From the NCBI GenBank assembly GCA_905221615.1, contig CAJNDT010006125.1, positions 186,001-250,000 of the forward strand: a DNA stretch of 64,000 nucleotides, given 5' to 3'. Of the stretch, positions 22,118-43,202 are shown piece after piece. The position numbers and the translations under genes were made by a program. The notes under the pieces are model-generated. The model made no database searches, was not told the DNA's origin, and saw nothing but the letters and a program-made list of their open reading frames with translations. The DNA is from Symbiodinium sp. CCMP2592 (Eukaryota; Sar; Dinophyceae; Suessiales; Symbiodiniaceae). Position 1 is the first letter of the stretch. Every line of letters starts with the position of its first letter.

Positions 22118-22128
22118 TTTGGTTTACA

Positions 22129-22191
22129 GGTTCGGGCTCATCTTCCTCCTCGCTTTTTTGGGCTGGCCGGGAGCACTCATCGAAGATGACG
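22129..22191 (+). CDS. Candidate hydrophobic N-terminal exon of the NhaD gene
   Basis: After an AG|G acceptor (TTTACAG|GTTCGG) one frame reads FGLIFLLAFLGWPGALIEDD followed by ATH, a signal-peptide or helix-like segment. A GA donor (CACAG|GAGAGG) follows. It lies just after the family C element at 22015-22117 and upstream of the first certain NhaD exon, where NhaD proteins carry an N-terminal hydrophobic leader. Junctions to neighbouring exons were not found. Confidence 0.3.
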
Positions 22192-22681
22192 CGACTCACA
22201 GGAGAGGATTCGGAGTTTAGGGCTTTCGCGCTGTGCTGGCTTCACGAGGGCAAGCTTATAAAGCTTCTCCCCCGAAAAAATGGCTTTGGGGTTAAGGGGT
22301 TTAGGTTAGCGGGGGAAAGGGGGGCTCTTGCTGTAACCGGGCTGCTGGACAACGAGGCCTGCTGCAAAAAGGTTAGCTTTTTCTGTAGGGTTTTGAATTT
22401 ATGGTTCAGGGCTGAACAGTGAACACCTGAACCCGAAATCCCAAATCCGTCTGATCACCCAAGTTGACAAGTTAAGGTACCCTGAACTCCCACAGGGCAT
22501 GCACAAGCTCGCAGAAGCCTGAAAAAATTGTAAGGACTTTCCCTTCCGATCCCGATTGCAGTGGTATTATAACATACCTCACACCCTATCCTAAGCATTG
22601 GGGCTCCTGTATTAAGGCAGTTCTTGAAGCTTGTTCAGGGTATTGGAGCATAGGGCATGGGGTTTGACGTTGCGAATGTCC

Positions 22682-22920
<239 letters not shown>

Positions 22921-23208
22921 AAGATAGACAAAGAGCCCTATATATGCCTTAGAGAAAAAACAGTGGGAGAGAGAGGGAGGGTTTTGGCCTCAGGGGCACA
23001 TAGAGGACCTACCTCAAGCTACCACATCCTACTTGTTTGCTGGGCCTTGTCGCCGAACCGATGAAAGTCCTGTAGCGGCCTCACAAAGCAATTGTAGTTG
23101 GGTTTAGGGATTGACAATCGCCAAGCAAGTTGTGAGCATCGACATAACGTGTCCAAGCCTTTACCGAACCTGCAGGATCCAGGGCAGTACCTCAGTTGAG
23201 GCTTTAAG

Positions 23209-23312
23209 TGGGAGTTTCCGAAAATAGTGGAGCTTAATAGAGCACCCTAACTAGTAGGATCCTTATTACAAGGACCTCAAAATAAGGTACCCCTATTTTT
23301 CGGAAACTCCCA
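23209..23312. mobile_element. Introner-like element, family B
   Basis: The ends are TGGGAGTTTCCGAAAAT and TTTTTCGGAAACTCCCA. The inner TAGGATCCTTATTACAAGGA and AATAAGGTACCCC blocks recur in the copies at 24190, 37705, 50196 and 53676. It lies upstream of the first certain NhaD exon. Confidence 0.85.
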
Positions 23313-24038
23313 AGTGTGACGATTGGGGCAGCTTCTGGCAGCCGAAGCCCTACACGCTAGCTAATACAGCATAGCTTATTCAGCGGCTCTGGGCACCGGA
23401 AGGTCGAAGCAGATACTGGTTGGTAACAGAGGCGACTCCTCTAGGCCGAGTATCTGAGGTAGGGGTGTAACCGGCTCTGTGTGAGCTCGGGCAGGGGACA
23501 TATTGGCTTGACTGGGCGCGCGGTATAATGGCAAGACCGTGCATCAATGTGCCCGGGGGCTTTCAAGTCTTCTAGTCTTACAGCAATTCCGAAACCGTAA
23601 TTAAGCCGTTCCATCCGCAACGCTCCGCAGAAGCTCATGTTCCCCAGGCTTTGCATCTATCGAGTAGATGGTACTAGATAGTATCTAGCAGCTTGTATAG
23701 ATCAGGCTGGCCATGTGCAGGTACCCACCTAGGTCGTTCCATAGCTGGGTAGGTGAGCAAATAGGTTGGCAAGTAGATCCTTCGGTCGACAGACAGGTAG
23801 AAGCGTAGATAGAGGCATTTAGACGCGTAGAAAGAACGATGGGCAGTTGGCAAGATAGATAGACAGATTTATACTGTGAGGCGCTTAGATAGACCGATAA
23901 ATGCCCGTGTAAGTGAAACATGCATGAACTATACCAGATGAATACCTATGCGTGTATGTATGTCGGAACAAAAAGCTGCTCCGACCTAGACTTATGGTTC
24001 ACCTTTTTAGCTCCGGACCCCCGGAGCCTTCGTGGCAG

Positions 24039-27000
24039 GAAGATCCTCGCGTCACTTTTCCTGACCGGAATCACATTGGTTGCTTTGGAGGACGTCATTC
24101 GGCTCGACGCTTGGGCCAACATATCCATAATCAGAGTGCGGTAAGAAAAAGTCGGAATGATTTTTGGTACACTCCGGTGGGTTCCTACATGGGGGTTTCC
24201 GAAAGTTAGGGGTACCTTATATTGGGGGGGTTATTAGGGTCCCCTATTTTCGGGAACCCCCAAATGTCTGGGGGTGAGAAGCAGAAGTAGATTGCAAGGA
24301 CAAGGCGGCCATCATGCTAGTCTTGGCCTCCGTCATGTGGACCTACCATGCCGCACAGAAGCATCCGACCAAGTCCCAAGAAGGGCACGAGCTGCTTCAT
24401 CACGACTCTCGATTGCATTCGAGCCACGATCGTTGACGCATCGAAGCGGCTGACATTCAAAGCCTAAAGCCCAAGATGCAGACGTGCCATGCCATGTTAT
24501 GTTCTGTCTGCCCCTTCACTCGCTAGCTTGTGTGACTGCAGGAGCTATCCAAAGGCTTGACGGACGTCGGAAGTGTGATTCTCTTCCTTCTCCCTGCCAT
24601 GGGCATTGTGGAGTCCATCGACCACATGGATGGTTTCGCCGCCGTCACGTCTTTCATCGTCCGATACACCCAAGATCACCCGGACCGGTTGATGCCAATG
24701 ATTTGCAGCTTGATGGCATTGCCGGACTTGGAGGAGAACTAGTGCGAGTTGAACCGGCTGGGTGACGGATGTCAAGCTGAGCTCGAACAGTTCCTACGTT
24801 TCTGTAACTTTAGGCCGCTGCTTGCCGTCTGCCACGAACTCCCCTGCTGCTTCGAGTGTCTGCCTCATCATGAGACTCAAGTGCATTCACAGCGTATTAG
24901 ATGTTCATGTTACAGCATCCCTCCTCGAAGCATAGAAGCATATTTGGGAAAAAACCAGCTTGCAGCTTGCACCGGGATGCGTGGCAAAACCAGCAGACGC
25001 TGCGTGTCGCAAGCAGTCTCCGCATCCATGCCGCTCCAATCCAGGGCAAGTGAATGCCAGAAAGATCCTTTAAGCGTGTGAACATGCGGCCGTGGCTGAC
25101 AAAGCACAGGCACCCTTGCCTTCTTCTTGAGCTCCGTCATCGACAACCTCACCGCCACCATTGTGTGCATCAAGATCCTGAAGCGCGTGGTACCTCACAA
25201 TCAGGCAGCTCAGCTTCGTCAGGTTGAGGGCTACGAGGTTGATGGAGGTTTTAGTTGAGCGTGATGTTTCCATGGGTCTTACCACTGGTCAGTATCTGGG
25301 TTTTGGAACAAGCAGATGGGGTTATGCCAGAGATTTCTAAACTACGTGTTCTTGTCGTCCAAACAAGCCCACCGCGAAGCTGAGTTCATGAAATAGTTAG
25401 CAAAGCTTCTGATATAGGAGTCGGATTAGTTGGTAACTGAGTAATGGCTATCCCCTCATTGTCCCTAGTATCATTGTCATTGTGGCCTAACAGCTTCAGT
25501 GGCCCCGGTGTGCGCTTACGGTTTCTTTCCTGTGGACTCTCTAAATCCCAAAGCCCTAAACCCTTAACAGGCTGCCGAAAGGCCGGAGACAAAGGCCTGC
25601 AAGATCTGCAAAGCCTAAACAGTCAAGACCTTCGAAGATGAAACCCTTGCAGGAATCCTTCAGCAATCCAGCTAGAAAAATGCAACGCGGAGACCCCGAG
25701 CGAAACTGCAAGGACTGGAGGCACTCTTGTGGAGGGGTCGTGGTCGTCGCGGCCAATGCTGGAGGCGCTTGGAGCCCCATCGGGGATGCTCCTTTGGCTA
25801 AACCGTAAGGAAACCCTTGTGACGCACCTAAAGGAACCCTTCAGGGTCCCAAAGACCCTAAGAGTTGGCATTCGGTTTTGGGATAGAATATATAATCTTC
25901 AAAGCCTAGTTCTTGGGTGAATATATGCGTGGTAATATGAGGCACTTGGACCTTTACGTCACGGCATGAAAGCTATAGCAGCTATAGGGTTTAGGATGAC
26001 GGCTGACGGCGGGTCCTATGCTTTCTCATGTTCGTTAAGGTTTCGGGCTGTAGGGCTTTGATTTTGGGTTCCTTGCCTAAATCAGGTAGGTTTAGTTTAC
26101 GCATACACGCACGCACGCACGTGCACGCTCGAAAAAGCCAACCTCAAACAAACCCAGAACTGAGACCGGTCTTCTGATCACCATAAGCCAGAGAAGCCAC
26201 AGGTCGACACAGGGCTGTGTACAATGGGTAGTCCTTAGAATGAGGATCCTAATCTCTATGTAGGGTACTATATTTAGGGTCCCCCATTGTCGGGAACTCC
26301 CGTATCGCCACTCCTCACTGACACCTTTCCCTATTTTCAGTCTAGCTGAAGCGGATCCAGCGGTTCTGCTTGCGACACAGCATCGGCAGCAATGGCTATC
26401 TGCTCCGCAGGAAACCTTGAAACATCGTCTTCTGGTTGACTCACTACCCCAAAATGTTGGAGCTACTCCGCATGGGCATCCAAGGTGACGACGACCATGC
26501 TTTGGATTCTCACCTGCAAAGAAACAGCAGTCAATGCTGTTGAATCGGCCCAGAAAACCAGAAATTCATGCCAAGCTCCCAAGCACCGCCAGTTGGATTT
26601 TTGAGGGACTCAAAAGCAGCTATTTAAGCTTGACGTTTAGGTGCTTTTTGCGAGCTCCGAACTATGAAAATCCTGCCACCATGCTTGAAACCGCTGGAAC
26701 CTAAGCAATTATCCCTCCCAAAACCCCGAAACCCCTAAACCCGACTCCCTTAACTCAGCTGAGCGAACTACCACACTACCAACATCAGGACCATCTTCAT
26801 TCCCTAGTGGTATATTTTATAGTACAGTACTATATACTGTGATGTGGGTCTAGACTAGGGCGGTGAGGTTGCAGGTCTGCGGATGTAAGTCTCAAGTGAA
26901 GCCGTCGGCCATGGACGTCGCAAGAAGCACTTCCAAATCTCGAAGCCCAAAGCCCTAGAACCGACCCCATGAGCCCTGAACTTCCAAAACGCCTGACCTA

Positions 27001-28763
27001 AGCCCCTAAACCCAAGTGACCCTAGACTCTTTGACCGCCAAAGTCTGAGGATCCAGCACAAGATTTCAACCTTCGGGACTGTGGACCTTTGGTCTGCTTT
27101 CAGAGTTCTGGGGCTTTAGGGCTTAGGGTTTCAGGGTTCTGGGGCTTCTGAGCTGTATACTAGTGCTCAGGGGTTTAATTTGGGGTCTGGGGATTTAGGG
27201 CAGTTTAGGGGTTGGAGTTGGCTTTCTTGCTGGCTTGAGGTCTGGAGTTGAGAGATTTGGGTTCCTGGGTTCGGGGTCGACCCAGCCGCCACAAACACAC
27301 ATACTTGTCTCTCATGGGAGTTTTGTCTCTCCTGCACCTCTGCAAGGATGTCTGGCGTGTTGTGAGGCCATGCAACCCTGAACCCTAAACCTGCCTGCAC
27401 ATCAGACTCATGCCCACACCATTGCAAGGCCCCACCTTCTTAAAAAAAGCTCAATTTCGGGTCTTCTTGCCTTTCGGAAGTCAGCCGGAGCTTGGGTGTT
27501 GGATGTATAGGGTCACCGAGGCAAGAGTTCTCAGCTTCAGAGCAGAATCACTTCCCTCCACGCTTAGTTCTTATTCCTCGGTGGTAGGTGCCCGGAGAAG
27601 GAGCCAGCAGGTGTGACTTCACCAGCTTCTAAATCCCTCGACGAGTGGAGGGACCCTGCATGGAAATCTCGGAGCATCTCTTGCAATCTGGAAGGTTCTC
27701 CTGTGTGATTTCAGGTATGGCTTTTCTTTCCTTCGCTCGTTGCTGGCTTTGCCCCGCTCTTTGGCATCTGGTGGCAGGCTGCATGGGGACCATTGAGGGG
27801 ACGGATCACCGGGGGCAGTTCGGTCTGTATTGGGTTTCGTCACTGCAGTATGCCGAAATTCTTCTTCGACGGATTAGCATAGACATGCCGTTCGTCGTGG
27901 GACTTGGCCCGCAGCCTCTCGCGCTGGCTGACTGCTTTGCCGTCGAGCCCTAAACACCCCAAGACCTTAACCACGACACCCTCAACCCCTAAGTCCTAAA
28001 CGCTGGCTGTAAACCAACAGCTCCTAGACGTAGCCGCCGTAAAGGTCTAAGTCCTAAACCCGAAGCCATCCCAAAGGACTGCAGCCCTAAAACTGACACC
28101 TTGGAGCGCCCGGAAGGCCAAAAAATGCCAGAAGGGTTCTCTGCGGGACGATGCGAAGCGCGACGTGAGCACAGCCTCCAGCACGAACGGCCGCCCGGGT
28201 CTTGTTTTAGCAAAACCCTAAACCCCTAAACCCTATACCCTAATCCCCTAAACCCCTAAACATCCCTAAACCCTAAACCCCTAAACCCCTAAACCCTAAA
28301 CCCCTTTAGTGCCCCTTCCAATAGCTGAGGGCGGCCCGAAAGTTCCGTGATTTCCACCGTTTCTGCCCAGAGAGCCCAGTACCCCTTAACTAAGGAATAT
28401 GCCTGAATTTATAAGGGGGTTCATATTGAAATATAAGGGGGCTCATATTGAATTATAAACGGGCTCATATTGAATATTGTGATTTAGGGTATATTCCTTA
28501 ATTAAGGGGTATTGGGCTCTCTGGGCTCGTCCGGATATGCTCCAACAAATCTTGAGCATTTCCGCCGCCAAGGTACTGCGACCTTGATTGTGGGAGCCTC
28601 GACGGCATTTGATTGCTGGTTCCGAAACTTCAGCCCACTACGAAAAAGTTTACATTGCTTTTTCGATGATGATGATGATGATGATGATGAGGATTACCCT
28701 TGAATTGAACTATTTGTGTTATCGTCATATGTATTGGAATTCACAATTTTTAATGCTACTACG

Positions 28764-28798
<35 letters not shown>

Positions 28799-31700
28799 TG
28801 CCACTATATTCTTTATGCGCATTATTAGTAGTCTTCGTATGATTAAGCTATACCGGCCCAAGGCTGGTCGTAAGCCGAGCAGTTTTGTTTTGATAGGCCC
28901 ACCTGCTTTCGATAAAAAACCTCTGAGGTGATGACACGGTTTAGAGTTTTCGGATTTAGGGTTTCGGGTCTAGGTTTTAGGATTTAGGGTTTCGGGTTTA
29001 GGTTTGTAGGGTTTGGGGTTTAGGTTTCAGGGTTTGGGGTTTAGGGGTTCGCCCTAAGGCCGAAGGCCTGAAACGGTGAACAGACAATCCAAGAGCTCAT
29101 TGTACCTGCATACCGAAACCAACCGTCAAAAAATGGCTGATTCCGGTAGTGTAGCTTATGGCGGCCCATGTATGTATGGCAAGGATCCGCGAAGCCGCAC
29201 TGTAGGCTTCTGTCGGCTAAGCTTGCGGAGTCACGGGGCACAGGAATGCTGTGCATCCTGATGGTGCCGGTTGTGAAGATGGTCACTGGGCTTCTGGCCG
29301 GCATTATGGGTTGGGGATGTTGGTCGAGGTTGTCACAGTGCTGCGTCGTTCGCGTTCCCCAGTTGGCGAGATTGATTTTGAGGTATAAGTTTGTCACACG
29401 CATCGGCCTCAGTAAGGGTTAAAAAAAGTGTCGGATTTGGTAATCGACCAAGCCGTAGCATTATCACTCACATGATGGGCGCTCCTTCTTGTCTTCAGCT
29501 CTTGACATCCTACCAAAACCTACTACACCATCTGTACAGATACGACCTTCCAAAGTTCGTGTTTAAGTGCCCTGTGCTGGTGCGACCTTACGGCCGTGGA
29601 CCGCCCATTGTGCAAAACAGGCTGCCTCCTTATCTTGGTATGATGATGGCTTTGGGTGTCTTCTGGCTGGTCGCCGAAATCTGCGAGTTGGGTGCGGCCC
29701 CTTGGTGTGAATGGGGCTTGTGATTTTAGGGTCTCCTAACCCTCAAACATCCTAAAACCATAAACTCCCTCAACCCCCCCCCCCTCCACAAAAAGGCCCT
29801 GACATCCTACCCCCACCCCCCACCGACCCACAGAAAGCAAGACTGAAAGCCTCCCAGCCAGGTCATCTTCGACCAGAAACCCCTAGCAAACAACAGAAGC
29901 AATAGAGACCCCCCTTTTTGAACCAAAATGCAGGGCTTAGGGTTTCGGGCACCAAATAGCAGAAACGACTACACTAGACCTGCAGCCCGATCTATTCATC
30001 AATCAGAACAACTTATATAGACCCTAAGCCCTAAGCGCCTTAGACTGTGGATGCAGGTACGCAGCCCCTGAACTCTATGCCTTAGCTGCACCATTTGCCA
30101 CCAAAGGTTGTGAAGATGCTGCGCAAGCGTTGTCGGTATTGGATTTTGCTAAAGGTTTCATAGGGTGTTAAGCAGTTGTTCTGAATAAGAGTTCTATCGT
30201 TTTGATGTTTGTCATAGCTTGTTGCAACGTGTTGATTGATTGCTTCTATGGTCAGTATAGGAGTTTACCGGGTTTGACAGGTTTTCAGGTTTATTTCCAG
30301 GTTTGTTGCCATTCTTAATAAGATTGTGCGGCTCTAGGGTGCCCCTACACCCTAAATAAAAGTAGTATAAGTATAATACCCTAAACCCTAAATACACGTA
30401 CGTTAATCGTTGCCGCAAGAGCTGGGGCCTGATATTACTCACAAGGATCCCCCCACGCCCCACCACCCCTGGTCCAGGTTACGGACGGCGATGAGGACTG
30501 ACTTCCATGGTATCATCTCCAGGGATCCTAGGGACTCAAGGGTTTAAAGATTGAAATAATGGGGCATAGTTTAGGGCTCCCATCAAGGAGTGTTTATTTA
30601 GTTACTTAGTATAGGGGGGTGACAACAGCACATTTTTTCCAAAAGGGCCTGTGCCAAAGCGGAATTCTGCCTCTCAGGAAGCCTTACTCCCCTCGGTGCT
30701 TTAGGGTTTAGGGACTTGAGCTCGGATTTTTGGGCTTACGGTTTAGGGCGTTGAGCTCTGATATTTAGGGTCTAGTGTATACCTAAACCCCCCAAAGTAG
30801 GCAAAATCATGGCGCAATACCTTCAAAAGGCTACTATTCTACCATACTTTGGGGGTCCATTTAGTAAGGGGTTTTGGTCGCCGGGTCCGTGGCGAGAGCA
30901 TATTTCGAACCCTGAACTAATCGTTTCAACTATAAACTAATAGTCGGAACCCTAAAATAGTAGTCCGAAGCTTAAATTAATAGAATTTTCGAACCGGAGG
31001 AGGCGGGGACGGCGCACTCGCTTCGAGGTGTCCCTGCGGCGTTGCACAAGGCCACGGGTGTAGGGGTTTAGGGGTTTCAGTAGGGTTTAGGGTTTAAGGG
31101 GCAGAGGCTTAGGGTTTAGGGTTTAAAGGGCGATGCAAAAAAAAGGGTTTAAAGGGTTTGGGGTTAAGGTGGCAGAGGATTAGGGTTTAAGGTTTAAAGG
31201 GTTTAGGGTTTAGGGGGGACAGAGGGCTTCGGAAGGCACATCGGCACATTCAGGTGTTCAGAGGTTTCGAGTTGCAAGTCTTTCGTTGGTTTGTTCAGGC
31301 CTACGACATAGCTTGAGACAGTTCGTTACAGTTTTCATGATTGGGGCTGAGTAGGGTTCGGCACCAAGGGCTCTTACCCGTCTTACCCGAATCACCCTGA
31401 ACCCTAAACCACCAAGAAAACCCGAATCCCTGAACCCTACACCCCAATTCACCAAGAATCCGTAAACCTTAAAAAGCCCTCCAAAAACATACAAGAATGC
31501 GCTTGGTGGCGATTCGTGGGTTCGGCCACTGGAGCAACAGAGGACCCTAAACCCTAAACCGTGACATGACATGCCTCCGAAGGAGTCGGAGAGCAGAATC
31601 TTTCTAGAAGTCCAGTGCTCGGAAAGTGGTTTACCCAAAGGCCCCAAAGTAGTTCCTTTTTTGGGGGTTCATATATAGAATCCTATAGGGTAACTCCAAA

Positions 31701-32152
31701 AAGGAACTACTTTGGGGCCCCTGGGTAGTTTAGAAACGCAAGTTTCAAGCAGTGTGAACGCGTAGGATCCTAAACCGGGATCGACGCCCTCCAAAGTACT
31801 TCCCTCAAACCCCCGCAGCCTCCGGCCCATGAGTCGAAATCTTAGTAGCCGAGTGGATACACTTTATATACACTTTTTATTTGGGATAATATTACCCACT
31901 ATAAAACTAAAAGTGTACACTTTTGGGGGCTTATGAACTCAGCAAACCTAGAAATCAAATTAGCACTGATCCTTCTTCATCGCTCTGGCGAAGCTCCGCC
32001 CAGAGATTGGAGTCAGTAATGTCCCTTCAGCTTAAGCTGTTTCCAAAAAGCCTCATGCAGAGTGTAGATATACATCAAGAAAATACATATATCATATTGG
32101 ATATAATCGTGTATTTATGTTTATATATATATATGTATATATGTATACATAC

Positions 32153-32183
<31 letters not shown>

Positions 32184-35065
32184 CTTTCAGCAGCCCCTTG
32201 GGTTGTTGAAACTGTCCAGGTGGACTTGAGCAGCCTGCTCTTCTTTACGGGCGCCACCCAGCTTGAAGCAGCAGCAGCAACGCAGGAGGAGGAGGAGGCG
32301 GAGGAAGCGGAGGAGGAGGAGGAGTCGTTGTTATAATATAGTGGTCGTCGTTGTAGAAGTCATATAGGAATTTCGGGGTATGCGGCGCAAATATAGGGTC
32401 TAACGTTCGCAACAAGTTGTAGCAATATCTAGATGAATTTAGTAGCAACAAGCTGAAACTAGTATATCGATTATGGTGAACAGCATTTAGCACGCAACAC
32501 GTTGCTAAGTGTCCACATGGCAGGAGACAAGGGAGTAGTGAGTACCAAGTAGTACCGTACTTGGAGGGGTACGCGTTACCTAGTCGCTCGTCGTCCTGGT
32601 CGTTGCGGTGTTAGTGGTAGCAGCAGGGGGAGTTGTAGTAGCAGTAGCAGTACTAGTGGTAGGAGTTGTCGTTGTAACTAGTCGTACTCGCAGTAGTAGT
32701 CGTCGTCTTCGTCGCAGCAGCCGCAGTAGCTGCAGGCATTGTGTGCAGTGGTACAAGGAGCAGTGGGGAGTGGCTGGGGCAGGTGGGGACAGGAGGACAA
32801 CGGGTTAGACGCAGCAGTGGCTGGAGTATCATTCGTCGGGTTATGCTGCAGGAAAGGCCCGGTAGAGACGGGGCAGAGAAGGGGGAGAAGCAACAAGCAA
32901 CTGAGGAATGCTACTAAATTGGACACCCCTCAACTTAAACAACCTTGAACAGTTCCTTCCCTTGTCCTCAAGTATCCGGCGACACAGAGAAACACCATAT
33001 TCAGCTTTTGTAGCCAAAACCGCAACGTTGAAAAGTGAACTCAAAACCCCGAGACATGAGCGCAACATGGTAAACTCTATAAGCCACACGGCAACAGCCT
33101 GAAACCCCTAACCTTTAGCCCAAGATCCTAAGCTGTACACCTGAAACCATAGGTACATGTTGCGGCAAAGCACCCTCCCAATGACACCCAACAGTCACAG
33201 CATTCGATATGAAGATGCATCGGCAACGACCCCGTAAGAAATTTTCATGGAGACCGCTTGGTGGCGAGAAGCACCCTCATACTCCCCCATATAATGCAGC
33301 AATGATATTATAGAACCACAAATCCTACACCCTCGGGGTCTAATCCCGAAACCCTGGCTACAGAACCCAACGGCCCAACGGCAACAAAACCCCACACCCT
33401 TACAAAACAAAACGTTTGAAATCCTAAACCCAAGCCCCCAAAATCCTAACGCCCCAAATCCTAAAGCCCCAAAACCAAAGCCCAAACTCGTAATGACCTT
33501 ATAAGCCAACATCGAAAATCCTAAGTCCCCAAATACTGCAACCCAACAGCCCCCAATCCCAAAAACCCGAAGCCACAAGCCCCCAAATTCCAAGAAAGCC
33601 CCAAGCCCAAAGACAAAACAAAGCAACATCCCAATCCCTCATCACGGTTTAGGGTTAGAGGGCTTAGTGTTTAGGGTTTAGGGTTTCTTCCCCTCCCGCC
33701 CACCCCCCCCCCAAAAAAAAAAAAAAAAAAAATCGAAGAAGCCGAGGTCTTGCTTGGCGTGGCAGCCCTAGAGTCAGCAGAGGTCCTTGAGCGCTACGCC
33801 AAGTTCATGGAAGAGGCCCCCGGGGGGGGGGGGGGGGGGGTTATGGTTTTATGTGGTTTCAGGGGGTTTAGGGGCTTCCGGTTTGGGGATTACGGGGTTT
33901 TGGGTTTTGTGGGGTTTTCGGGGTTCCGGATTTGGAGATTACAGGCTAGAGGGCTTTTAAGGGGTTTAGGCTTACGGGCTGGGGATTGCAGGGTTTGGGG
34001 TTACAGGCTTAGGATTTGAGGCTTTCGGGTTTGGTTTAGTGGGGTTTGGGGGGTTATGACAGGCTGAAGGTTTAGACTCGAGGGTTTAGGGTTTAGGGTG
34101 TACGGTTTAGGGTGTCGGGTTTAGGGTTTAAGGTTTAGGGTGTAGGGTTTAGGGTGTAGGGTGCAGGGTTCAGGGTTTAGCGTTCAGAAAGTTGGGTTTT
34201 CTTGGGGTTGAGCGCTCAGGGGTTCTGGGGATTGGGGGGGCTTGAGGTCTAAGAGTCTACGGTTCAGAATTTCAGATTCAAAAGACTTAGAGGTTTGGGG
34301 GTCCCAGGGCCAGGGTATTATTAGAATGTTTTTTGGGTCGCATTGTAAGTGTTAGGATTTAGGGTTTTGAATTTATTTGGGGTTTTATGACAAGAGTGAT
34401 TTAGGATGTTGTGTTTGTGTTGCCCCATTCTTGCGTCAAGGGTTCGATAGCACTGGTTTGGGTGTTAGATCTCATTGTTTATTGGCCTAGGATTTCGGTG
34501 GGCGTTGTAATCCTATGTTAGCATTTTATAGGGTTTGGAAGGGATGGGTTTGGAAGGGTAGAATATCTAAGGCCTTCATAGCGCTTTAAGACGCTTTAGG
34601 ACGGCTCACAACATAATTCGCTTATAGATGTTTCAGGCGTATGGTTGAGGCGGTAGTGAGGTGCTGGCCAGGGGGGGTAGTCGGGGTTGGAAGGTCTGGG
34701 CTAAGGGTTGGATTCAATTTAACGCCGTGAAGTGCGCGGTGGGCCTGTTGACAGCTTGAGGCACGATGTTGCTGTTGCGTCTGCCGTTCAGGGGCGCTTG
34801 CAAGGATCTGGAGTCGGTTTGAGCGTTTGGGACTTCGGGTGCAGGGCTTAGTGCTTGCATCGACAAGAGCTCGAGGTGAGGACCACCTGTCGAGAGCTAG
34901 GTCTCTTGCAAAACTCCAAACTTTAGGCTGCTTGTTAAACCTAGACCTTGAACTGTAGCATTTCGATGTGTTGGATTGGTTGTCTGATCCTGAAATCTAA
35001 AAAGAAATGAATCCGAAAACAGGCTGCAATCCGGTTTCGAACACGCCGCATAAGTGTCACCATGA

Positions 35066-35099
<34 letters not shown>

Positions 35100-38000
35100 T
35101 GTGTCTGTGTCTGTCCGCAGTTGCTACTATCTGATGCGGGGGCTGTTCTGGAGGGATTAGGGCCTTCCGTGTCGCCTGAATCCGAAACAAAGCCCTACAC
35201 CCTACAGCCCCCGACGCAACTTGCGATCGTTTGGTTGTGCCATGCGTCAAAGTACACCCTAGTCACCACCAACTAAACCTGAAACACGAAGCCTCAACTT
35301 CAAACCCTTAAACTCAAAAAGCAATGTCAAGGACCCTGGATGAATTGCTGAGCCTCAGAGCCCCGAAACCCCAACCCAAACCCTAACCAGACCTTTAGCC
35401 CGAAGCCCTAAAGGTTTCTAACACTCGGTTTAGGGTTTAGGGCCTAGACCCTGAATCCCTAAACCCGCTCAACCAGTGTAGCTTCACTCAGCCGGCCTCG
35501 AACCAAATGCCTCGCCTGGATTGTCCGAGTGTGAGCGCCGAAAGCCGATAAACTCCAAACCCTCAACCCCTAAACCCGTGGTGTACAAGTAGCAAGCTCA
35601 GCGGACCCAGTGCCTGAAGCCGTGCCTGCCTTGTGCGAGGGTGTGAGTCGGAAACCCCTAAACCCCTAAAGACTAGGTCACCCACGGCAGCTCCTTGCTC
35701 TTATGCTCCCTTCTGGGCATCTCCTCGGCTGTGGTTGACAACGTTCCGCTGGTCCAGGCTTCACAACTCTAAAGGGTTGCATCCTAAACATCCCTAAGAC
35801 TTTACGGGCCACATCCTAAACATGCCGTATCATTAAACCTTAAAGGTTTAAGGTCCGGGGTTTATATAGGGTCTAGGTTTCCGGCATTCAAGGTTTAAGG
35901 TTGTCTAGGTAGCACTTGGGAATGCTTTTGAGTTCCCTTGTGGTCCCAGAACGGTAGCGATGGAATGAAACCGTAGGCCTAGGGTTAAGGGTTTTAGTGT
36001 TTAGGATTTACAGGGCTTTAGACTGCAGGGTCAGGGTCAGAGACAAGCTGGGCTCGTTTGCTTGCTCAGGTCCTGCACTGCGTTGTCTCCTCCTAGGCCA
36101 TAGTTTCCCCTTGCCTCATCATGCTTGAGGTGCGAAGTTGACTCTAGTCAGTCACAGACACATGCTCGTCCACCTTGCCAAGTCCCGCGGGTCAGATTCT
36201 TTGTCCTAGAACTTTTCACATTCAAAGGATCTTCGATTTCAGGTGTCGAGTCTGAGAGAGTTGGAGGTGTACAGCCACTGCATAGTAGAGCGCAGCATGC
36301 CACACCATAACTACAGCCACTACATCGTATAGTCTATAGTTTACCACAGAATCAAACACTATGATGCTATACCACTAGCTACTGGTATAGTACAAAAAAG
36401 AATTCACTATGATGCTATACCACTAATGGTGTAGTATAGTACATAAACCAGATCGTACGTTGACCTCGCTGGCAGCTCGCATGAAACGCCCATGACCACG
36501 GCAGGCATCCATCGAGATGTTCAAGGACCGAAGCTCAGGGGCTCCTCCTAGCTTGGGCCTTGGGTTTTGGTGTTTGCAAGAAGGCTTTGGGTTCAGGGCT
36601 TAGGGTGGTTTTGGGCGTAGGCTTTGAGGGTCTTTTTTTAAGCAAAATTTGGTTTTGGGATTCAGGGTTTAGGGTTTATAAACAGGGTTCAGGATGAAAT
36701 GACCTTGTAGTTCCAGTTCTGCTATCACCAAGCCCCCTACGACAGTGATCGGAAAACAGGGAGCGAAGCTTTACGCGTGATTTTCGGATCCTCGCCAGAA
36801 GGAGCCCTGAAGAAGGCATCCTCAATTTTCCCTTGCCCCCAAACAAGTGTCTATGCATTGATTCATTTGTTCTTTCTTGCAGCAGCGTGCCAGCAAGGCC
36901 TCAGGTGTTCCCGCTCGCGTTTGTTCTTCTCTGAGTTTAGGGACCCCTTACCTTAGTGGCTTTAGTAACGGATTTTTTTAATGGGGCATCCCTAGCCTGA
37001 TTTTTGCTTCTGTGCTTTTTCGGGGCCCTATCCGAGTGTGGCACCTCGTCAAATGCCTTGTAGTAGAGTATTTGACCTTTAACCTCTGTTGGGGTAGTAT
37101 AGCCCCCAGATAATCCCTATATAACCAAAAAGGTTACAATTAACCTTCAGTTCCCCATGATACCCGACAAGTAGGAATGTTCTTGGTGGGTCAGGAGCCG
37201 ATGGATTCACCGTTGTGGCAGCTGACTGCACTCGCTTCTGCCTTAATTACCTATTGCGATTATGCGGGTTCCTGATTTTATTGATATCTATATTCTAAGC
37301 CTAAACCTAAACCCCTAAACCCTAAGCCCAAATCTATATTCTAAGTCTATCGGCCCTGTATTTGGGTTTCGGTTGGGGGGATCGGCCCCGAGAAGCAGCC
37401 TACGCAGGACTTCAGATGCGCAGTTGCCCAAACCCTATAACCATGCATTGCTAGGACGCAGAGTACGCCCTTTTTCCGGTTCCTTTGGGGTTTAGGTTCC
37501 TTTTGACCCCCTTTAAACCAAAAAGGGCACCCTGGTTATTTCAGGATACTCTTAGGTCTACAGATTGCGCAGGGGGCGACTGGTTGTCTTTCAGGTGCGG
37601 CATTGCAGTAGCAATGAAGAGGCAGGCCCCATGCCGAGCCGACGAACCGGAGCTTCAGAGCGGTATCTACCCCCGGCCCCCAACCTCTAACTCCCAAACT
37701 CAAGTGGGACTTTCCGAAAATTAGGGGTACTTTATTTGGGGTCCTTTTTCTAAGGATCCTATTACATAGGATACTATATTCGGGTCCCTATTTTCCGAAA
37801 CCCCCGAGGAAACCTGCCAAACTAAGAAAGTAGGCAGATCGGGGGTGCAAACAATGGCCCATCTGAACCCTGACCCGACGGAAACCCTCCTTGGACTTCG
37901 GGATCATTACGTACAGCGACAGAAGTGTGGCAAGAATTGCGAACCGCCAGACCGCACCCCTACAACCATGAAGAAAATGATGCAGCAGTATTGAGGCTGG

Positions 38001-41000
38001 CAAGTAGTGGCAGATTGTTAGAAACTCGAAGGGCGAAAATCTCCGCCTCAACCCTAAACCTGAACGGCGAAACCCAGGCCGCTGGAACCGGAGGTTCCAT
38101 GCTGGCCGTCGGCAGCGTCGCAGGTCTGGGCGTGACTTGCGAGGTTCAGGTCAAACACGCGTGCTCATGACACTGATCATGTTGCAAGTGATGATGAGGA
38201 TAAGCCACACTGGACATGATGAACACCAGGACAGACGTGTATGATCAGAACCCATCAAACGGCCACGGCTCAAGGATTTCTTACGGGGCATCACTTGCTC
38301 TCAGAACCTCTTCGGCGAGCTTTCCCAGAGTCGGTCTTGCAATGGCGTTCGGAAGTAGCTCTCCGGCCGTCTTGGAGGACAGACTCCAGAGTGAGGAAGC
38401 TCATTATCATTGTTAGTAGCATCTGATGCTTATCGAACCCTACACGTTAGGCGGGAGTAAAACTATACCGAAGCCTTGATGAAGCATTTTCAATTAATGC
38501 TCCTCTAAAAGGGATCCCGCGCGAGGCCAAGAGCCAACTTGGACCAAAGTCGCGCTACATCGGAAGCTTGCTGGGTTTGCTGGGCTTGGTCTTCGTGATC
38601 TCGAAGCGGGTCCCGCTCTTTGGGACCGATGGCACCAACCACCGGAGATTGTCTGAGGCGACTTCGCCCCAGCTTGCCAGCTCTGGATGCTGCCGCTTCG
38701 CCAAGGAGTTCGAGGGCGTGGATTGGCACGATGCGAAGACTCGGGCAGATTACATGGCGAATGTGATGTACGTGGAGCGTGGCTTTCTTGGAGGAGCAGC
38801 TAAGCTCTCTTTCGATCCCGACACCGGCATGACCTATGACGGCGTTGGACTGGACGACAGCACTGGCGAAGTCCAGCATGGAACTCTCCGAACTTTCTCG
38901 GCACCATCCAAAGAGGCTCTGCATTTGAGCCTGCTTGCGTTGGCCCTTCAGCCCGTCGAGGACGTGCCTGCGGAGCTGGCCACAGTGTTTCCTTTGCTTT
39001 ACAGCGCCGATGAGGCACTCGACATCCTGGACAAGAAGGCCAAGACCATGGAGGACTTTGACGCAAACTACCCAGGTTTCGGGGGCTTCCTGCCTTGGTT
39101 CTGTTCTCGTGGCATCAACAAGGCGGGGCATTGCAAGACCCTTGCAGACCCTGGAACCAAGATGACCCCGGTGTCCGGCTGGGAAAGGACCCTGCCTGGC
39201 CTGGATAACGGCCAGCTTGCATTTGGCGCTGCTGCCGTGGTACATGTTCTGGAACGCCGTGCTAAGCAGGAAGGCACCTCCAGTCGGTTTGCACAGACGG
39301 CCCGGCGCTGGAACGCTCGCTTGGAGCGGATGAAGGAATCCGTTGTCAACTTGTTCTACAATGGAGCCGGCTTGGTGCGCATGGTCAGCGAGCTCGACAA
39401 CGTCACAGTCGATATTGCCAAGAATGCCTCCAATGCTCACAACGAAAACGGCTTGTTTCTTTGGGATGCCTTCGAAGGGGAGATGATTGTCCTCTTCTTG
39501 GACATCTTTGGCAACTGGACCAAGTACCCAAACAATGGTGAGGAGGAGAAGAAGCTGATGTGGAAGATCAAGGCGGAACATGTCGAGCCTGTTGTGTACA
39601 CAGCCGCCGACGACACGAAGATGGTTCTGCAGAAAGGGTATTGGTTCTCAGCACATGAGCAGTGGAAAACCTTGCAGCTCCCCTACATGGATATCCCACT
39701 GGTCAAGCACCTTTTCGCAAACGGTGAGTTCGCACGCTTGGAGAATTCCGTGCGAGAGCAGCTGCCTGGCCTCATGGCATCGGTGAATGCACCCAACGGT
39801 GTGCAATGTGATGCCCATCCCTACTGCAGCGCTGTAGGAATCCAGTCCTTGGCCGAAGAGCCCGTTTTCAGTTTCAAAGAGTCGGAGACAGTCCTTACCC
39901 CCTACGCCGCTTTCCCTTCGATTTTGGTGGATCCAGCTGCTGGGCTTGCATGGTACAACCACATGCTGGCCATGCCGCGGGTGCAAACACCTGTTGGCAG
40001 CATTGAGTCATTCACAGTCACTGGGAAAGCCGTTGCCCCCATGGCGACATGGGACGCCAAGGTTACGACCGTTTTGGCCATGCTTGGCGGAACGGGGCCC
40101 CTGCTACGCACTTACATGGAGGAGCGGGGAGTCTACGGCATCTTCGAAGATCGTGTGAAGTCCATGTACGAGCCGGTGTTCAAGCCAGTTATTACATCTG
40201 TAATGCCCGGCAAGGCCTCCGTCGACCTGCACATCGCGCAGCTCCCGCAGCTGCCCTGGCCGGCACCTCATCCCGCAAGCAAGGACTCCCTGGTGCTTAG
40301 TAGGGAATGGGGGAATCGATCCCTTATAGTAGTCTGCTTTGTAGTGAATGGGGGAATCGATCCTATATAGTATAGTAGTCCCTATATAATCCGCAATAAT
40401 AGTCTCCACAATCCATTCCCCGATTGCCTAAGAACCAGACAGCCAGGAGTCTGTGCCGGAGGACTTTCCGAGCTGCCGCTGCCTCGAGCACGAGAGCGCG
40501 CCCGGCTTCCTGCAGCCGAAGAATCCCTGAGGTGAGCAACGTGGTACGTAGTACCCTGACAAAGACATCCCTGGTCTCAGATTCCAGCCTGAACTCAAAG
40601 CCCAAAAAACCTTTAAAGCCCTAGGCCCTATGGTAAGCCCAAAAACCCTACAGGAACCAGGGATTTCTGCATCAGGTTCCTGCAATAGGCCCCTGAACTC
40701 TGGGCTTCTCAAGATGGCAGAGTAAGCTTAGGGTTTAGGGTCTCAGAGTTGGGGGCTTTTGAGCTTAGGAGAAGGGCTTAGCGTCAAGATGTGGTCTGAG
40801 ATAGGGTTGAGGGCTCAGGGGTACGAAGGGGCTTGGGGTTTGGGATTTAGGCTTGCTTACTCACAATACTAGTGTTTAGGGCGGAGGTACAAATAACAAC
40901 AAGGTTTCGACGTTTGGGATATGGGGTTTACGGTGCAAGGAATAGTGGTGTTTAGAGTTTAGGGTTTGGGTTAAGGGCTCAAGGTACTCACATTCAGGGC

Positions 41001-42639
41001 TTGGGGTTTAGAGATGATCAGGGTTTGGGGCACTTGGAATAAGGACTCTGCCATTTGGTGTTGTTGTTGTGGCTTTTCTTTTCTGAAGATTCTTGAGACG
41101 CCCGGCAGCAGTAATTCATTTGTTACAAAAACACATGCTTAGAACGGTGACGATGTTGTCAATGATTTTGGGTTTCTGACTCTCTGGCACCTGTGGCGTG
41201 CAGACAGTCTGTATAGAGGTGGTTGCAGTGTGCAGGTTTACAGGCTGGCATGCCGCAGCTTCTTCTTTTGAGCAGCCCTTGTGGCTCCAATCCGCTCAAC
41301 AGCAAAGTGCAGAGCATAATCTGCTTTAAGGGCGCTGCTGTAGAATCTACAGCAGGGCACAATTTAATCTGCGGAATTGCAAACTCTGCAATTTCTTCCG
41401 TTTTGCCGTATGCGGGCTGGGCGCCGGAGGATAAGAATACTGTAAACCGCATGCCATAGCCAATCCACAACCGGAAGTGCCGAGACGCCCAGCCGCAATA
41501 ATTCGCAGGGCTTGTATATATGTACATGCTTAGAACTTTGGCGATTTTGTCAGTGATTTATGTTTCTTGACTCTCCGGTCCCTAGTGGCCAAGACAGTCT
41601 GCATAGAGGTTGTTGTAGTGTGCCCTGCTGCGAGTAGTGGCATGCCGCAACTTCTTCTTTTGAGCAGCCCTTGTGGCTCCACTGACTGCGCGCCTAACAG
41701 CAAAGTGCAGAGCATAATCTGCTTTAAGGGCGCTGCTGCAGAATCTGTAGTGGTGCGCGAATTCGACGTGCGGAGTTGCACCCTCTGCAACTCCATATGC
41801 CATTTGAACGAACTGTTTTCCAAAGCACTAGTCTGTGCGTGAACAAAATACACAAGGTGCAGCACCTGCAGTGCCCGAGCTGTGACTCTCGTTCAGCCAT
41901 CTGCCGTCTCGGAAATTTCTCGAGAGACCCCAGGACCATCCTGGACACAACCCTCGCAAATCCAAGTGGAGCCTACCCGGATTGAACCCCAGAGCTTCGT
42001 ACGGTTGATGATATTAATCCTGCATTACCTTAAGGACCTTAAACTATTCCTTATTATGGGTCATGCAGGATTTATATCATCAACCGCAGCATGGGAGGTG
42101 TCACCCTCATGGGCCTGGAGGGCGTCGGCTTTCTCTGGTACGCGCGTCGCATAAGCCTCCCGATTTCAGCAAGAGCAGCCTTCTGTTTGTCGTAGGATTC
42201 TCCTCAAGTCGTGGTGGTGTAAGTATGTCTTGTTCTGAATAAGTATTCTTCGTAGTGGTGACTGTGGTAGAAGATTGTAGATCCTTTGGTTGGCAAGGTA
42301 AAGCAAAAGCGCCACAGTTCAAGTGTGCATAGACATGCGTGGCGAGTCGCGACAAGAACTTGTTTCTATCTTGCCAGGATCTTAAACCCTGAACCCCAAG
42401 CACACAATCGCCCTTTCACACGAAAACTCAGATCGTTCAGGTTACTATGAAGTGGTGTTTGAGATTTTTGCTAACTACTAGCAATAGCAACCGTTAGTGG
42501 TAGCCGTGGTAGAGGTAGTGGTGGTAGAGTCGCACTACCACTACTACTATTACTACTACTACCACCACTACCACTACCACTACCACTACCACTACCACTA
42601 CCACTACCACTACCACTACCACTACCACTACCACTACCA

Positions 42640-42684
<45 letters not shown>

Positions 42685-42687
42685 CTG

Positions 42688-42760
<73 letters not shown>

Positions 42761-43202
42761 CTACTACTACCACTACTACTACTACCACCACTACTGCTGC
42801 TACTGCTACTCGTATTGCTACTAGTGCTAGTACGAGTAGTGGTACTAGCACTAGTACCAGCAGTAAGCAGTAGGTCTTCTCAGAACGAGCAGTCGTAGTA
42901 AAAACAACGCCAGTAGCTCTGGAAATACTACTAGAATCAGAATACTACGACTGCTACGACGACGACTACTGCTGCTGCTACTGGTGGTACTATTGGTACA
43001 TGTTGGTCCTACTCCGACTCCTATTACCACCTCAACTACTATTACCACAACTGCTACTACTGTCACTTTACAACTACCGGGTCAGCCGGCGAAAAGGTCA
43101 GATGTGCAAGAACGCTGCGCCGGATCAGGTCTCTGGGCTGCGCTGGGTTACGCCCTGGGCCTGGCAACCTACACGGCCCAGCGGGCTTGGACACCGCAGT
43201 AG
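24039..43202 (+). CDS. NhaD-family Na+/H+ antiporter, at least 17 exons
   Basis: This polytopic membrane protein would exchange Na+ for H+. Exons: about 24039-24105, 24299-24403, 24542-24707, 25110-25204, 25713-25787, 26485-(end unresolved), 29244-29289, 29621-29684, 31000-31050, 32220-32252, 33747-33815, 35677-35757, 36505-36525, 37195-37233, 38078-38129, 42098-42154 and 43129-43202 (stop TAG). Family-type motifs in order are FFLSSVIDNLTATIV, VVVVAANAGGAWSPIGD + VTTTMLWI, LPPYLGMMMALGVFWLVAE, VLLGVAALESAEVLE, SAVVDNVPLV, AAGTGGSMLAVGSVAGLG and VTLMGLEGVGFLWYARRI. Both DN-containing helices and both Gly-rich re-entrant-like stretches are present. All 15 resolved donors are GC (11) or GA (4), every acceptor is AG|G, and phases agree. 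A segment between MLWI and MLCILM is missing, and the N-terminus is unresolved. The intron 38130-42097 contains the separate gene 38342-40530. Confidence 0.83.
24190..24262. mobile_element. Introner-like element, family B, in a NhaD intron
   Basis: The ends are TGGGGGTTTCCGAAAGTTAGGGGTACC and TATTTTCGGGAACCCCCA. It lies inside the intron 24106-24298, between exons ending EDVIRL and starting DKAAIML. Confidence 0.85.
26225..26302. mobile_element. Degenerate family B element in a NhaD intron
   Basis: The right arm (TAGGGTACTATATTTAGGGTCCCCCATTGTCGGGAACTCCC) matches family B. The left arm (TGGGTAGTCCTTAG) is decayed. It lies between the exons at 25713 and 26485. Confidence 0.6.
27645..27953 (+). 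CDS. Open stretch in a NhaD intron, function unknown
   Basis: The most coding-like part begins at an ATG near 27718 (after TTTCAGGT) and reads MAFLSFARCWLCPALWHLVA, then runs on to QPLALADCFAVEP and a stop at 27951. It lies between the NhaD exons at 26485 and 29244. It does not resemble the missing NhaD segment. It may be chance. Confidence 0.2.
   Translation: MEGPCMEISEHLLQSGRFSCVISGMAFLSFARCWLCPALWHLVAGCMGTIEGTDHRGQFGLYWVSSLQYAEILLRRISIDMPFVVGLGPQPLALADCFAVEP
28205..28312. repeat. Interstitial telomere-like tract in a NhaD intron
   Basis: About a dozen CCCTAAA or CCCCTAAA units lie head to tail. Confidence 0.8.
28365..28525. mobile_element. Long palindrome with three internal tandem units
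   Basis: The ends GCCCAGAGAGCCCAGTACCCCTTAACTAAGGAATAT and ATATTCCTTAATTAAGGGGTATTGGGCTCTCTGGGC are inverted over about 36 bases. Between them GGGG(G/T)TCATATTGAA-type units of about 22 bp repeat three times (28425-28475). It lies in the unresolved part of the NhaD gene. Confidence 0.8.
28533..28580 (+). CDS. Candidate exon filling the NhaD gap
   Basis: The frame reads DMLQQILSISAAKVLR, and ISAAKVLR resembles the I-S-x-x-K-V-I/L stretch that follows MLWI in NhaD proteins. It lies between the flanking exons at 26485 and 29244. No AG|G acceptor is immediately upstream; the nearest is inside the palindrome ending at 28525. I therefore treat it as a candidate only. Confidence 0.3.
30788..30860. 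mobile_element. Family F element, opposite orientation, in a NhaD intron
   Basis: CCCCCAAAGTAGGCAAAATCATGGC pairs with AAAAGGCTACTATTCTACCATACTTTGGGGGTCC. It lies in the intron 29685-30999. Confidence 0.75.
31055..31220. repeat. TTTAGGG-rich tract directly after a NhaD exon
   Basis: Starting five bases after the donor at 31051, TTTAGGG-type units and a GGCAGAGG-containing larger unit repeat about four times on the + strand. Confidence 0.75.
31631..31738. mobile_element. Introner-like element, family D, in a NhaD intron
   Basis: The ends are TTACCCAAAGGCCCCAAAGTAGTTCCTTTTTT and AAAAAGGAACTACTTTGGGGCCCCTGGGTAG. It lies in the intron 31051-32219. Copies occur at 63406 and, more decayed, at 54602. 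Confidence 0.85.
31857..31945. repeat. Dispersed element with GTGTACACTTTT arms
   Basis: ACACTTTATATACACTTTTTATTTGGGATAATATTACC pairs with ATAAAACTAAAAGTGTACACTTTTGGGGGCTTATGAACTCAGCAA. The right part recurs at 52610-52650 as GAAAGTGTACACTTTTTGAGACTTATGAACTCAGCAA. Confidence 0.7.
32156..32182. repeat. (AG)n microsatellite
   Basis: About 13 AG units lie 37 bases before the NhaD exon at 32220, close to its polypyrimidine region. Confidence 0.85.
33640..33745. repeat. TTTAGGG, C-run and A-run before a NhaD exon
   Basis: A TTTAGGG tract is followed by a run of nine C (33705-33713) and about 20 A, which reaches within 15 bases of the acceptor at 33746. Confidence 0.8.
33819..33840. repeat. Poly-G run next to a NhaD splice donor
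   Basis: The exon ending GAAGAG at 33815 is followed by GCCCCC and then about 19 consecutive G. The run lies only six bases inside the intron, and could cause assembly or sequencing length errors. Confidence 0.85.
33841..34320. repeat. G-rich degenerate TTTAGGG tract
   Basis: GGTTTAGG, GGTTTCGGG and GGGGTTT variants continue for nearly 500 bases on the + strand, with the purest units at 34080-34170. It lies within the intron 33816-35676. Confidence 0.75.
35068..35112. repeat. (GT)n microsatellite
   Basis: GTGTGT of about 30 bases passes into CTGTGTCTGTGTCTGT. It lies in the intron 33816-35676. Confidence 0.9.
36316..36445. repeat. Repeated ACTATGATGCTATACCACTA units
   Basis: CACTATGATGCTATACCACTA occurs near 36357 and again near 36408, with TGGTATAGTAC arms that can pair with it. 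It may be a palindromic element with an internal duplication. It lies in the intron 35758-36504. Confidence 0.65.
36505..36525 (+). CDS. 21-nt microexon of the NhaD gene
   Basis: The exon encodes ASIEMFK, bounded by CAG before it and GA (GACCG) after it. It joins SAVVDNVPLVQ (35677-35757) to EPMDSPLWQLTAL (37195-37233) in phase. The joined stretch VDNVPLVQASIEMFKEPMD follows the family pattern of VDNVPLVAA, a short linker and a Met-Asp pair. No other phase-0 AG|G segment that I could find between the two neighbours fits. Confidence 0.7.
37705..37805. mobile_element. Introner-like element, family B, in a NhaD intron
   Basis: The ends are TGGGACTTTCCGAAAATTAGGGGTAC and TCCCTATTTTCCGAAACCCCC. 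It lies inside the intron 37234-38077. Confidence 0.8.
38342..40530 (+). CDS. Type II membrane glycosidase-like protein nested in a NhaD intron
   Basis: Exons are 38342-38390, 38512-40292 and 40447-40530, with phases agreeing, giving about 637 residues. The first exon reads MAFGSSSPAVLEDRLQ; the second opens with a basic stretch and a single membrane segment (IGSLLGLLGLVFVIS), predicting a short cytosolic tail and a large lumenal domain. Sequons NVT, NAS and NWT support a lumenal location. Motifs such as WDAFEGEMIVLFLDIFGNW, TPYAAFPSILVDPAAGLAWY and GGTGPLLRTYMEERGVYGIF resemble (alpha/alpha)6-barrel glucoamylase-like proteins (PF10091, GH144/GH162 type); family and substrate are inferred from memory. 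Both introns start with GT, unlike the host gene. The 1,781-nt central exon contrasts with the host's exons of 21-166 nt. The tail reads CRCLEHESAPGFLQPKNP. GCCACGGCTCAAG at 38262-38274 resembles a shrunken spliced leader. Confidence 0.75.
40293..40446. mobile_element. Family J palindromic element forming the last intron of the nested gene
   Basis: The intron starts GTGCTTAGTAGGGAATGG and its right part reads CCATTCCCCGATTGCCTAAG before ACCAGACAGCCAG, giving inverted ends CTTAGTAGGGAATGG / CCATTCCCC…CTAAG. The centre has two copies of GAATGGGGGAATCGATCC. The ends match the element at 21845-21919. Confidence 0.75.
41095..41860. repeat. Tandem duplication of a ~385-bp unit
   Basis: Copy 1 (41095-41481) and copy 2 (41482-41860) share GAGACGCCC, ACATGCTTAGAAC, GACAGTCTG(T/C)ATAGAGGT, GGCATGCCGCA(G/A)CTTCTTC and GCAAAGTGCAGAGCATAATC, each in the same order. 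They differ by substitutions and small indels. Neither copy has a convincing reading frame. The duplication lies in the large NhaD intron, after the nested gene. Confidence 0.85.
42003..42085. mobile_element. Palindromic element just before a NhaD exon
   Basis: The inverted ends are GGTTGATGATATTAATCCTG and CAGGATTTATATCATCAACC, separated by about 40 bp. The element ends 12 bp before the exon at 42098, so it lies at the 3' end of the large NhaD intron. No second copy was found in this window. Confidence 0.7.
42300..42390. repeat. Dispersed repeat, copy 2, in the last NhaD intron
   Basis: AAAGCAAAAGCGCCACAGTTCAAGTGTGCATAGACATGCGTGGCGAG through TTGTTTCTATCTTGCCAGGATCTTAAACC matches 5346-5437. 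Its boundaries are not palindromic, so it differs from the introner-like elements. Confidence 0.75.
42535..42860. repeat. (ACT)n and (CCACTA)n compound microsatellite
   Basis: About 15 CCACTA units are followed by about 35 ACT units with rare interruptions, all inside the last NhaD intron. Confidence 0.95.

What the first reader, a model, noticed from the sequence alone, without database searches (positions are those of the whole stretch)
38130..42097. A complete gene nested on the same strand inside a NhaD intron
NhaD exons 38078-38129 and 42098-42154 join in phase to restore a conserved C-terminal motif, yet between them lies a 637-codon gene with its own start, membrane anchor and stop, on the same strand. 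Same-strand nested genes need either separate transcription or very accurate skipping. The nested gene is almost intronless (one 1,781-nt exon) and uses GT donors, while the host has exons of 21-166 nt and only GC/GA donors. This suggests a later arrival, possibly a retrocopied mRNA.
Basis: partly seen in the sequence, partly recalled or inferred. Interest (0 to 1): 0.85.

Follow-up and report, generated by a model that had tools for sequence, protein, structure and literature searches.

The report
Retrogene-like glucanase gene inside NhaD intron
In a dinoflagellate genome, an intact sugar-cutting enzyme gene that looks like an old copy made from messenger RNA sits inside an intron of a sodium pump gene; such nested genes are common in these algae, so this is a clear example of a known kind.

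Summary
An NhaD-family Na+/H+ antiporter gene (25-26 modelled exons, about 20716-43202) is confirmed by a nearly intronless paralog. Inside it, same strand, lies an intact homolog of GH162 endo-beta-1,2-glucanase with three catalytic-site residues conserved. The genome is a dinoflagellate's (93 matches to spliced leader plus donor). It holds three more copies: one with about 45 introns, two intron-poor. Similarity among copies covers a transcript-like unit (about 38250-41885), beginning at or within about 20 nt of a spliced-leader-like GGCTCAAG; flanks are unrelated. The window copy is under purifying selection (dN/dS 0.10-0.19). So 'later arrival, retrocopied mRNA' is the best reading, but the copy is old (dS 0.57 to its sister), and its last intron is an introner-like hairpin element, better read with a GA donor. 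Genes nested in introns make up 6.5-8.4% of Polarella genes, so the arrangement is known. Transcription could not be tested.

The parts
20716..43202 (+). Host NhaD Na+/H+ antiporter gene, 25-26 modelled exons; first exon(s) uncertain
   Evidence: spliced alignment to L008; NhaD models E 1.8e-96 and 6.3e-41; CitMHS E 1.8e-28
38078..38123 (+). Host exon just before the nested gene (...SVAG)
38124..42097 (+). Host intron, GT-AG, 3974 nt, holding the nested gene
38267..38274 (+). GGCTCAAG, candidate relict of the dinoflagellate spliced leader (its 3' 8 nt), at or close to the 5' edge of homology among copies, 67 nt before the ATG
   Evidence: a 12-mer match here is not above background
38342..38377 (+). 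Nested gene first exon (start codon 38342); its 3' boundary is uncertain (38377 to 38390)
38526..40283 (+). Nested gene main exon, GH162-type glucanase domain with a hydrophobic N-terminal stretch (likely membrane anchor, by eye); the 5' edge could be 38512
40284..40446 (+). Nested intron 2: hairpin (inverted-repeat, introner-like) element, GA-AG; absent at this site in copies C1024 and C4135
40447..40530 (+). Nested gene last exon and stop (TGA)
41133..41885 (+). Likely 3' UTR, with a tandem pair of about 390-nt units shared with the two other intron-poor copies; one unit in the intron-rich copy
42002..42086 (+). 28-nt-arm inverted repeat just before the host acceptor
   Evidence: genome copies not counted
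42098..42154 (+). Host exon after the nested gene (VTLMGLEGVGFLWYARRI)
43129..43202 (+). Host last exon and stop

Best explanation
A 25-26-exon NhaD antiporter gene carries, in one intron, an intact same-strand gene for a GH162-type beta-1,2-glucanase, probably membrane-anchored. The nested gene descends from a processed (intron-free) messenger copy of an intron-rich glucanase gene; a transcript-sized unit (about 38267 to 41885) landed in a pre-existing intron of ordinary size (about 355 nt remain outside the unit), was kept by selection, and later re-acquired introns, at least one from a hairpin repeat element. Shown: gene structures by homology, selection, limits of homology, and the hairpin element at a site that is empty in two copies. 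Inferred: retroposition as the route. Expected but not shown: the nested mRNA gets its own 5' end by spliced-leader trans-splicing (the AG before GATTT, kept in all four copies, is the likely acceptor), while the NhaD mRNA arises by cis-splicing 38123 to 42098.
For: NhaD chain and the exact join. The TIGR00775 match covers residues 34-469 of the joined protein, into both exons beyond the nested gene; exon 42098-42154 against L008 shows 9.5 changes at 14 synonymous sites but 4.5 at 43 non-synonymous ones. GH162 homology E 8.5e-77 to 6imu, with E262, H316, D446 of TfSGL conserved (alignment; residue roles from passages of PMC12102758; positions matched by hand with a constant offset). Intron-rich relative with 46 modelled exons against a single-frame copy (C4135) and an intron-poor one (C1024). 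At E 1e-6 nothing outside the unit matches C4135 (30 kb against 29.7 kb) and only non-colinear dispersed repeats match C1024. SL-like motif at the homologous place in all four copies, in the -50 to -100 zone reported for relicts (PMC6050394 passage). dN/dS 0.096, 0.186, 0.175 against C1024, C4135, C4913. 93 exact DinoSL+GTA matches, 0 in the reversed control.
Against: The SL-like match is only 8 nt in the window; the best 12-mer match there (8/12) is not above background, and the intron-rich copy carries the motif too, so it would tag an older event shared by all copies; there it lies about 240 nt before the ATG in genomic DNA, outside the -50 to -100 zone. No target-site duplication or poly(A) was found. 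Nested introns fall at or near introns of the intron-rich copy (after E12 and K608), so partial retention is possible there. Window and C1024 show weak similarity for about 20 nt upstream of the motif. The last host exon is less constrained (18.2 of 19 synonymous and 13.8 of 50 non-synonymous sites changed). No transcript data.
Confidence: 0.75

Rival explanations
1. DNA-level dispersal: an already intron-poor glucanase copy was moved into the NhaD intron by segmental duplication or a transposon, not by reverse transcription of its own mRNA.
For: Three intron-poor copies share the doubled 3' unit that is single in the intron-rich copy, so they share one intron-poor ancestor; about 20 nt of weak similarity upstream of the SL-like motif between window and C1024.
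Against: No colinear flank homology with C1024 or C4135 over about 30 kb; the limits look like those of a transcript.
Confidence: 0.25
2. The intron-poor state is ancestral and the C4913 copy gained about 45 introns; no retroposition was involved in the intron-poor copies.
For: Hairpin elements do enter these genes; the intron-rich copy also carries the SL-like motif.
Against: It needs about 45 gains against one processing event; only 1 of its 45 introns has exact terminal inverted repeats of 8 nt or more, though that measure also misses nested intron 2.
Confidence: 0.1
3. The NhaD gene is split or dead here: its transcript ends upstream, or the two last exons belong to another copy or a misjoin.
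For: No transcripts were available; trans-splicing inside the intron could cut the host pre-mRNA.
Against: The exons beyond the nested gene complete the NhaD protein in order and phase; tblastn of the paralog found no significant further NhaD exon within the intron (only E 5.0 and 9.7 matches); constraint on exon 42098-42154.
Confidence: 0.07

Closest known systems
Genes nested in introns of Polarella glacialis
   Same: Genes located in introns of multi-exon genes in a dinoflagellate: 4898 (8.4%) and 3359 (6.5%) genes; the paper states that the nested structure was confirmed by full-length transcripts (PMC7245778, one passage)
   Different: The passage gives no strand and no retroposition history; here the history of one case is traced through paralogs
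Dinoflagellate retrogenes with DinoSL relicts
   Same: Intron-poor copy, intron-rich relative, SL-like motif in the -50 to -100 zone (PMC6050394, passages; PMC12014239, passages)
   Different: The possible relict is short (8-9 nt) and shared by all copies, the intron-rich one included
Mammalian H13/Mcts2
   Same: Nested gene within a host gene, with questions of transcriptional interference (PMC13309782 and PMC3107425: titles and starts of abstracts in the listing); that Mcts2 is a retrogene in an intron of H13 is partly recalled
   Different: Imprinted there; spliced-leader processing expected here
Dinoflagellate introners
   Same: Transposable elements that create introns (PMC11453091, passages; PMC11114475, one section read)
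   Different: Here one introner-like hairpin element sits in the nested gene at a site that is empty in two paralogs; splicing not shown

Membership tests
Nested intronic gene | Complete gene within an intron whose flanking exons join in phase | tested here: met
Nested intronic gene | Both transcripts are made | not testable with these tools
   no RNA data held
Dinoflagellate retrogene | Lacks introns of the parental copy | tested here: met
   41 of about 45 introns absent; the remaining 4 fall at or near the two nested introns and cannot be scored (count by hand)
Dinoflagellate retrogene | DinoSL or relict upstream | tested here: inconclusive
   8-nt GGCTCAAG at the homologous place in the copies; a 12-mer match is not above background in the window
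Dinoflagellate retrogene | Unrelated flanks | tested here: met
   (E 1e-6); weak 20-nt upstream similarity to C1024 noted
GH162 endo-beta-1,2-glucanase | Sequence homology to TfSGL | tested here: met
   E 8.5e-77, 35% identity
GH162 endo-beta-1,2-glucanase | General acid E262, general base D446, H316 | tested here: met
   alignment, roles
GH162 endo-beta-1,2-glucanase | Hydrolysis of beta-1,2-glucan | not testable with these tools
   needs an enzyme assay
NhaD antiporter (host) | Match to NhaD models | tested here: met
   NF038006 140.7 bits, over its cut-off of 80; TIGR00775 323.5 bits, below its cut-off of 577.1
Introner element (nested intron 2) | Dispersed repeat with inverted ends, with empty sites in paralogs | tested here: met
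   47 matches from 40 scored of 1316 first-look candidates; empty sites in C1024 and C4135
Introner element (nested intron 2) | Is spliced out as an intron | not testable with these tools
   inferred from the reading frame and the paralogs only

The most novel reading that the evidence does not exclude
Host and nested gene share one pre-mRNA, and spliced-leader trans-splicing at the intronic acceptor near 38274 competes with host cis-splicing, so that each transcript yields either NhaD or the glucanase: a built-in either/or switch created by a retrocopy that brought its own trans-splice acceptor.
Probability: 0.2. Interest if true: 0.65.

Novelty: new member of a known kind. Interest (0 to 1): 0.4.

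Why it matters
It gives one well-resolved history for a nested gene in a dinoflagellate: intron-rich source, processed copy, landing in an intron, selection, and renewed intron gain from a hairpin element seen against two empty sites. It also offers a clean locus to ask how cis-splicing of a host and spliced-leader trans-splicing of a same-strand nested gene coexist.

Tried and rejected
A pattern scan of viral contigs confirmed no relative of the glucanase (26 candidate stretches, 0 confirmed). Two bacterial relatives at 31% identity in UBP9 MAGs (44 candidate stretches, 2 confirmed) only served as outgroup; the branch order of C4135 against the intron-rich copy is unresolved. A test for terminal inverted repeats in the introns of the intron-rich copy was insensitive: it missed nested intron 2. 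The SL-like 12-mer was tested against background and is not significant in the window alone. Pfam on 10 of the 12 listed ORFs of at least 150 aa gave nothing over a cut-off; of the other two, the glucanase frame was scanned and the antisense ORF 38505-39581 was not scanned. Rfam at gathering threshold gave nothing. A first comparison of host and L008 coding sequences failed because I had misplaced the L008 intron and was redone. Searches were only pauses.

Full report
Setting. The window is G000:C5263:186001-250000 of a 1.098-Gb assembly in 5383 contigs. The exact DinoSL sequence followed by GTA occurs 93 times in it (50 forward, 43 reverse), much of it in arrays, against 0 for the reversed control, so the organism is a dinoflagellate. 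Size, about 50% GC in the window, long genes and long introns resemble Effrenium voratum (assemblies 1.1-1.3 Gb, 50.7% GC, mean gene 20 kb; PMC11114475, passages and one section read), but the species was not tested.

Host gene. A family search brought in a paralog (L008, contig C5340) whose 479-residue protein is encoded with a single 71-nt intron in my reading. Aligning that protein to the window with a splice-aware dynamic programme (donors GT, GC, GA; acceptor AG) gives 25-26 exons between about 20716 and 43202. Donors are 15 GC, 8 GA, 2 GT of 25 introns; 19 of the 21 introns examined are followed by G. The review PMC11453091 (passages) gives GC/GA donors for 25-74% of introns in Symbiodiniaceae, so this is ordinary. 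The host protein matches NhaD (TIGR00775 E 1.8e-96, below that model's curated cut-off; NF038006 140.7 bits, over its cut-off of 80).

The intron. Under all three donor weightings the alignment picks 38123|38124 and 42097|42098, giving SVAG|VTLMG exactly as in the paralog. It is GT-AG and 3974 nt long; the other 20 introns have 138-1861 nt. The last two exons complete the family profile. Exon 42098-42154 shows protein-level constraint against L008 (9.5 of 14 synonymous, 4.5 of 43 non-synonymous sites changed); the last exon less so (18.2 of 19 and 13.8 of 50). Host and L008 are saturated at synonymous sites (dS about 3.2), so this constraint cannot be dated to the time after the nested gene arrived.

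The nested gene. Its product has no Pfam match but matches endo-beta-1,2-glucanase 6imu/6imw with E 8.5e-77 over residues 58-561 of the query, 35% identity in the two-sequence alignment. PMC12102758 (passages) names E262 as general acid, D446 as general base and H316 as the residue that stands in GH162 for the clan's phenylalanine; with a constant offset of 12, counted by hand, these fall on E, D and H that are conserved in the window protein. The same paper says that GH162 is distributed almost exclusively in eukaryotes. Third-position GC (0.69) resembles the host's (0.71).

Copies elsewhere. The own-genome search found 6 matches at four places: the window; C4135 (one open frame, 635 residues, 79.7% identical over 631); C1024 (89.7% over 575 aligned residues, with at least one clear intron); and C4913, where a spliced alignment gives 46 exons (the tiniest are uncertain) and 78.6% identity over 631. 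Window and C1024 are sisters (98/99); the order of the other two is open. dN/dS of the window copy is 0.096 to C1024 (dS 0.574), 0.186 to C4135, 0.175 to C4913: an old, selected gene, not a fresh insertion.

Why retroposition. By my count the nested gene lacks 41 of the about 45 introns of C4913; the other four (2, 3, 4 and 43) fall at or near its own two introns and cannot be scored. Similarity among copies covers 5' UTR, coding part and 3' region, up to about 41885. At E 1e-6, over about 30 kb, nothing else matches C4135 and only non-colinear dispersed repeats match C1024; with a looser search, similarity to C1024 begins at 38246, about 20 nt before the motif. The motif is GGCTCAAG|GATTT in window and C1024, GGCTCGAG|GATTT in C4135 and TTGGCTCAAAG|GATTT in C4913, which is the 3' end of DinoSL; the ATG follows after 67 nt in the window. 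Relicts are reported between -50 and -100 (PMC6050394, passages); in C4913 the motif lies about 240 nt before the ATG in genomic DNA, so a 5' UTR intron would be needed there. The 8-mer has a chance of about 0.001-0.0016 in a 51-nt zone, but the best 12-mer match in the window is not above background. Because C4913 has it too, it would mark an event older than the copies' split. The three intron-poor copies share a doubled 3' unit that is single in C4913, so they share an intron-poor ancestor. Removing the unit leaves about 355 nt of intron, an ordinary size for this host.

Intron regain. Nested intron 2 is a hairpin repeat with inverted ends (RNA fold -49.8 kcal/mol for 40285-40450), one of a large family (47 matches from 40 scored of 1316 candidates). 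Of the 12 fetched family loci, one of them the window's own, 10 were printed before the script stopped on an error, so the last two were not inspected. Both other intron-poor copies are empty at this site. With the GA donor at 40284 the joined reading K|ESVPEDF equals C1024. C4913 has an intron after the same lysine, but no similarity between the two introns was found.

How it probably works. Spliced-leader trans-splicing, general in dinoflagellates (PMC6050394 passage), makes it unnecessary for the nested gene to have an isolated promoter: a trans-splice at an AG upstream of 38342 would give its mRNA a 5' end. The AG before GATTT is kept in all four copies and is my candidate. This is inference; no RNA data are available.

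Known or new. Nested genes make up 8.4% and 6.5% of the genes in two Polarella glacialis genomes, and the paper states that the nested structure was confirmed by full-length transcripts (PMC7245778, one passage). Retrogenes and introners are also well described in dinoflagellates. The listings of my five searches on nested genes, introns, retrogenes and trans-splicing (49 rows in all, abstract starts only) showed no paper on this gene pair; the library holds only openly licensed papers. Verdict: real, well supported, new member of a known kind.

Noticed in passing
L008 (C5340:1035451 region): NhaD paralog with a single 71-nt intron against about 25 in the window copy, dS saturated; possibly an old retrocopy itself, but no spliced-leader-like match above background was found in the 400 nt upstream.
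   Followed up: partly
42498-42870: Long ACT/ACC trinucleotide microsatellite in the last host intron.
   Followed up: no
41133-41790: Tandem pair of about 390-nt units in the likely 3' UTR, doubled in the three intron-poor glucanase copies but single in the intron-rich copy.
   Followed up: partly
L019 (C1024 copy): The C1024 glucanase copy carries its own hairpin-ended intron (10-nt exact inverted ends) at a site uninterrupted in the window and C4135 copies, and probably two more insertions near its 5' end (by eye): independent intron gain.
   Followed up: partly
42002-42086 and 44239-44341: Two hairpin elements with 28-29-nt arms; the first ends 11 nt before the host acceptor, and 25 nt of it recur inverted at 54761-54785.
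   Followed up: no
L001 (C5051:2529984-2531567): An intronless 610-residue frame of the CitMHS family deep inside a long contig, bacterial in look; horizontal transfer or contamination not examined.
   Followed up: no
L009, L010: Relatives of the glucanase (31% identity) in two MAGs of candidate bacterial phylum UBP9, although GH162 is described as almost exclusively eukaryotic.
   Followed up: no
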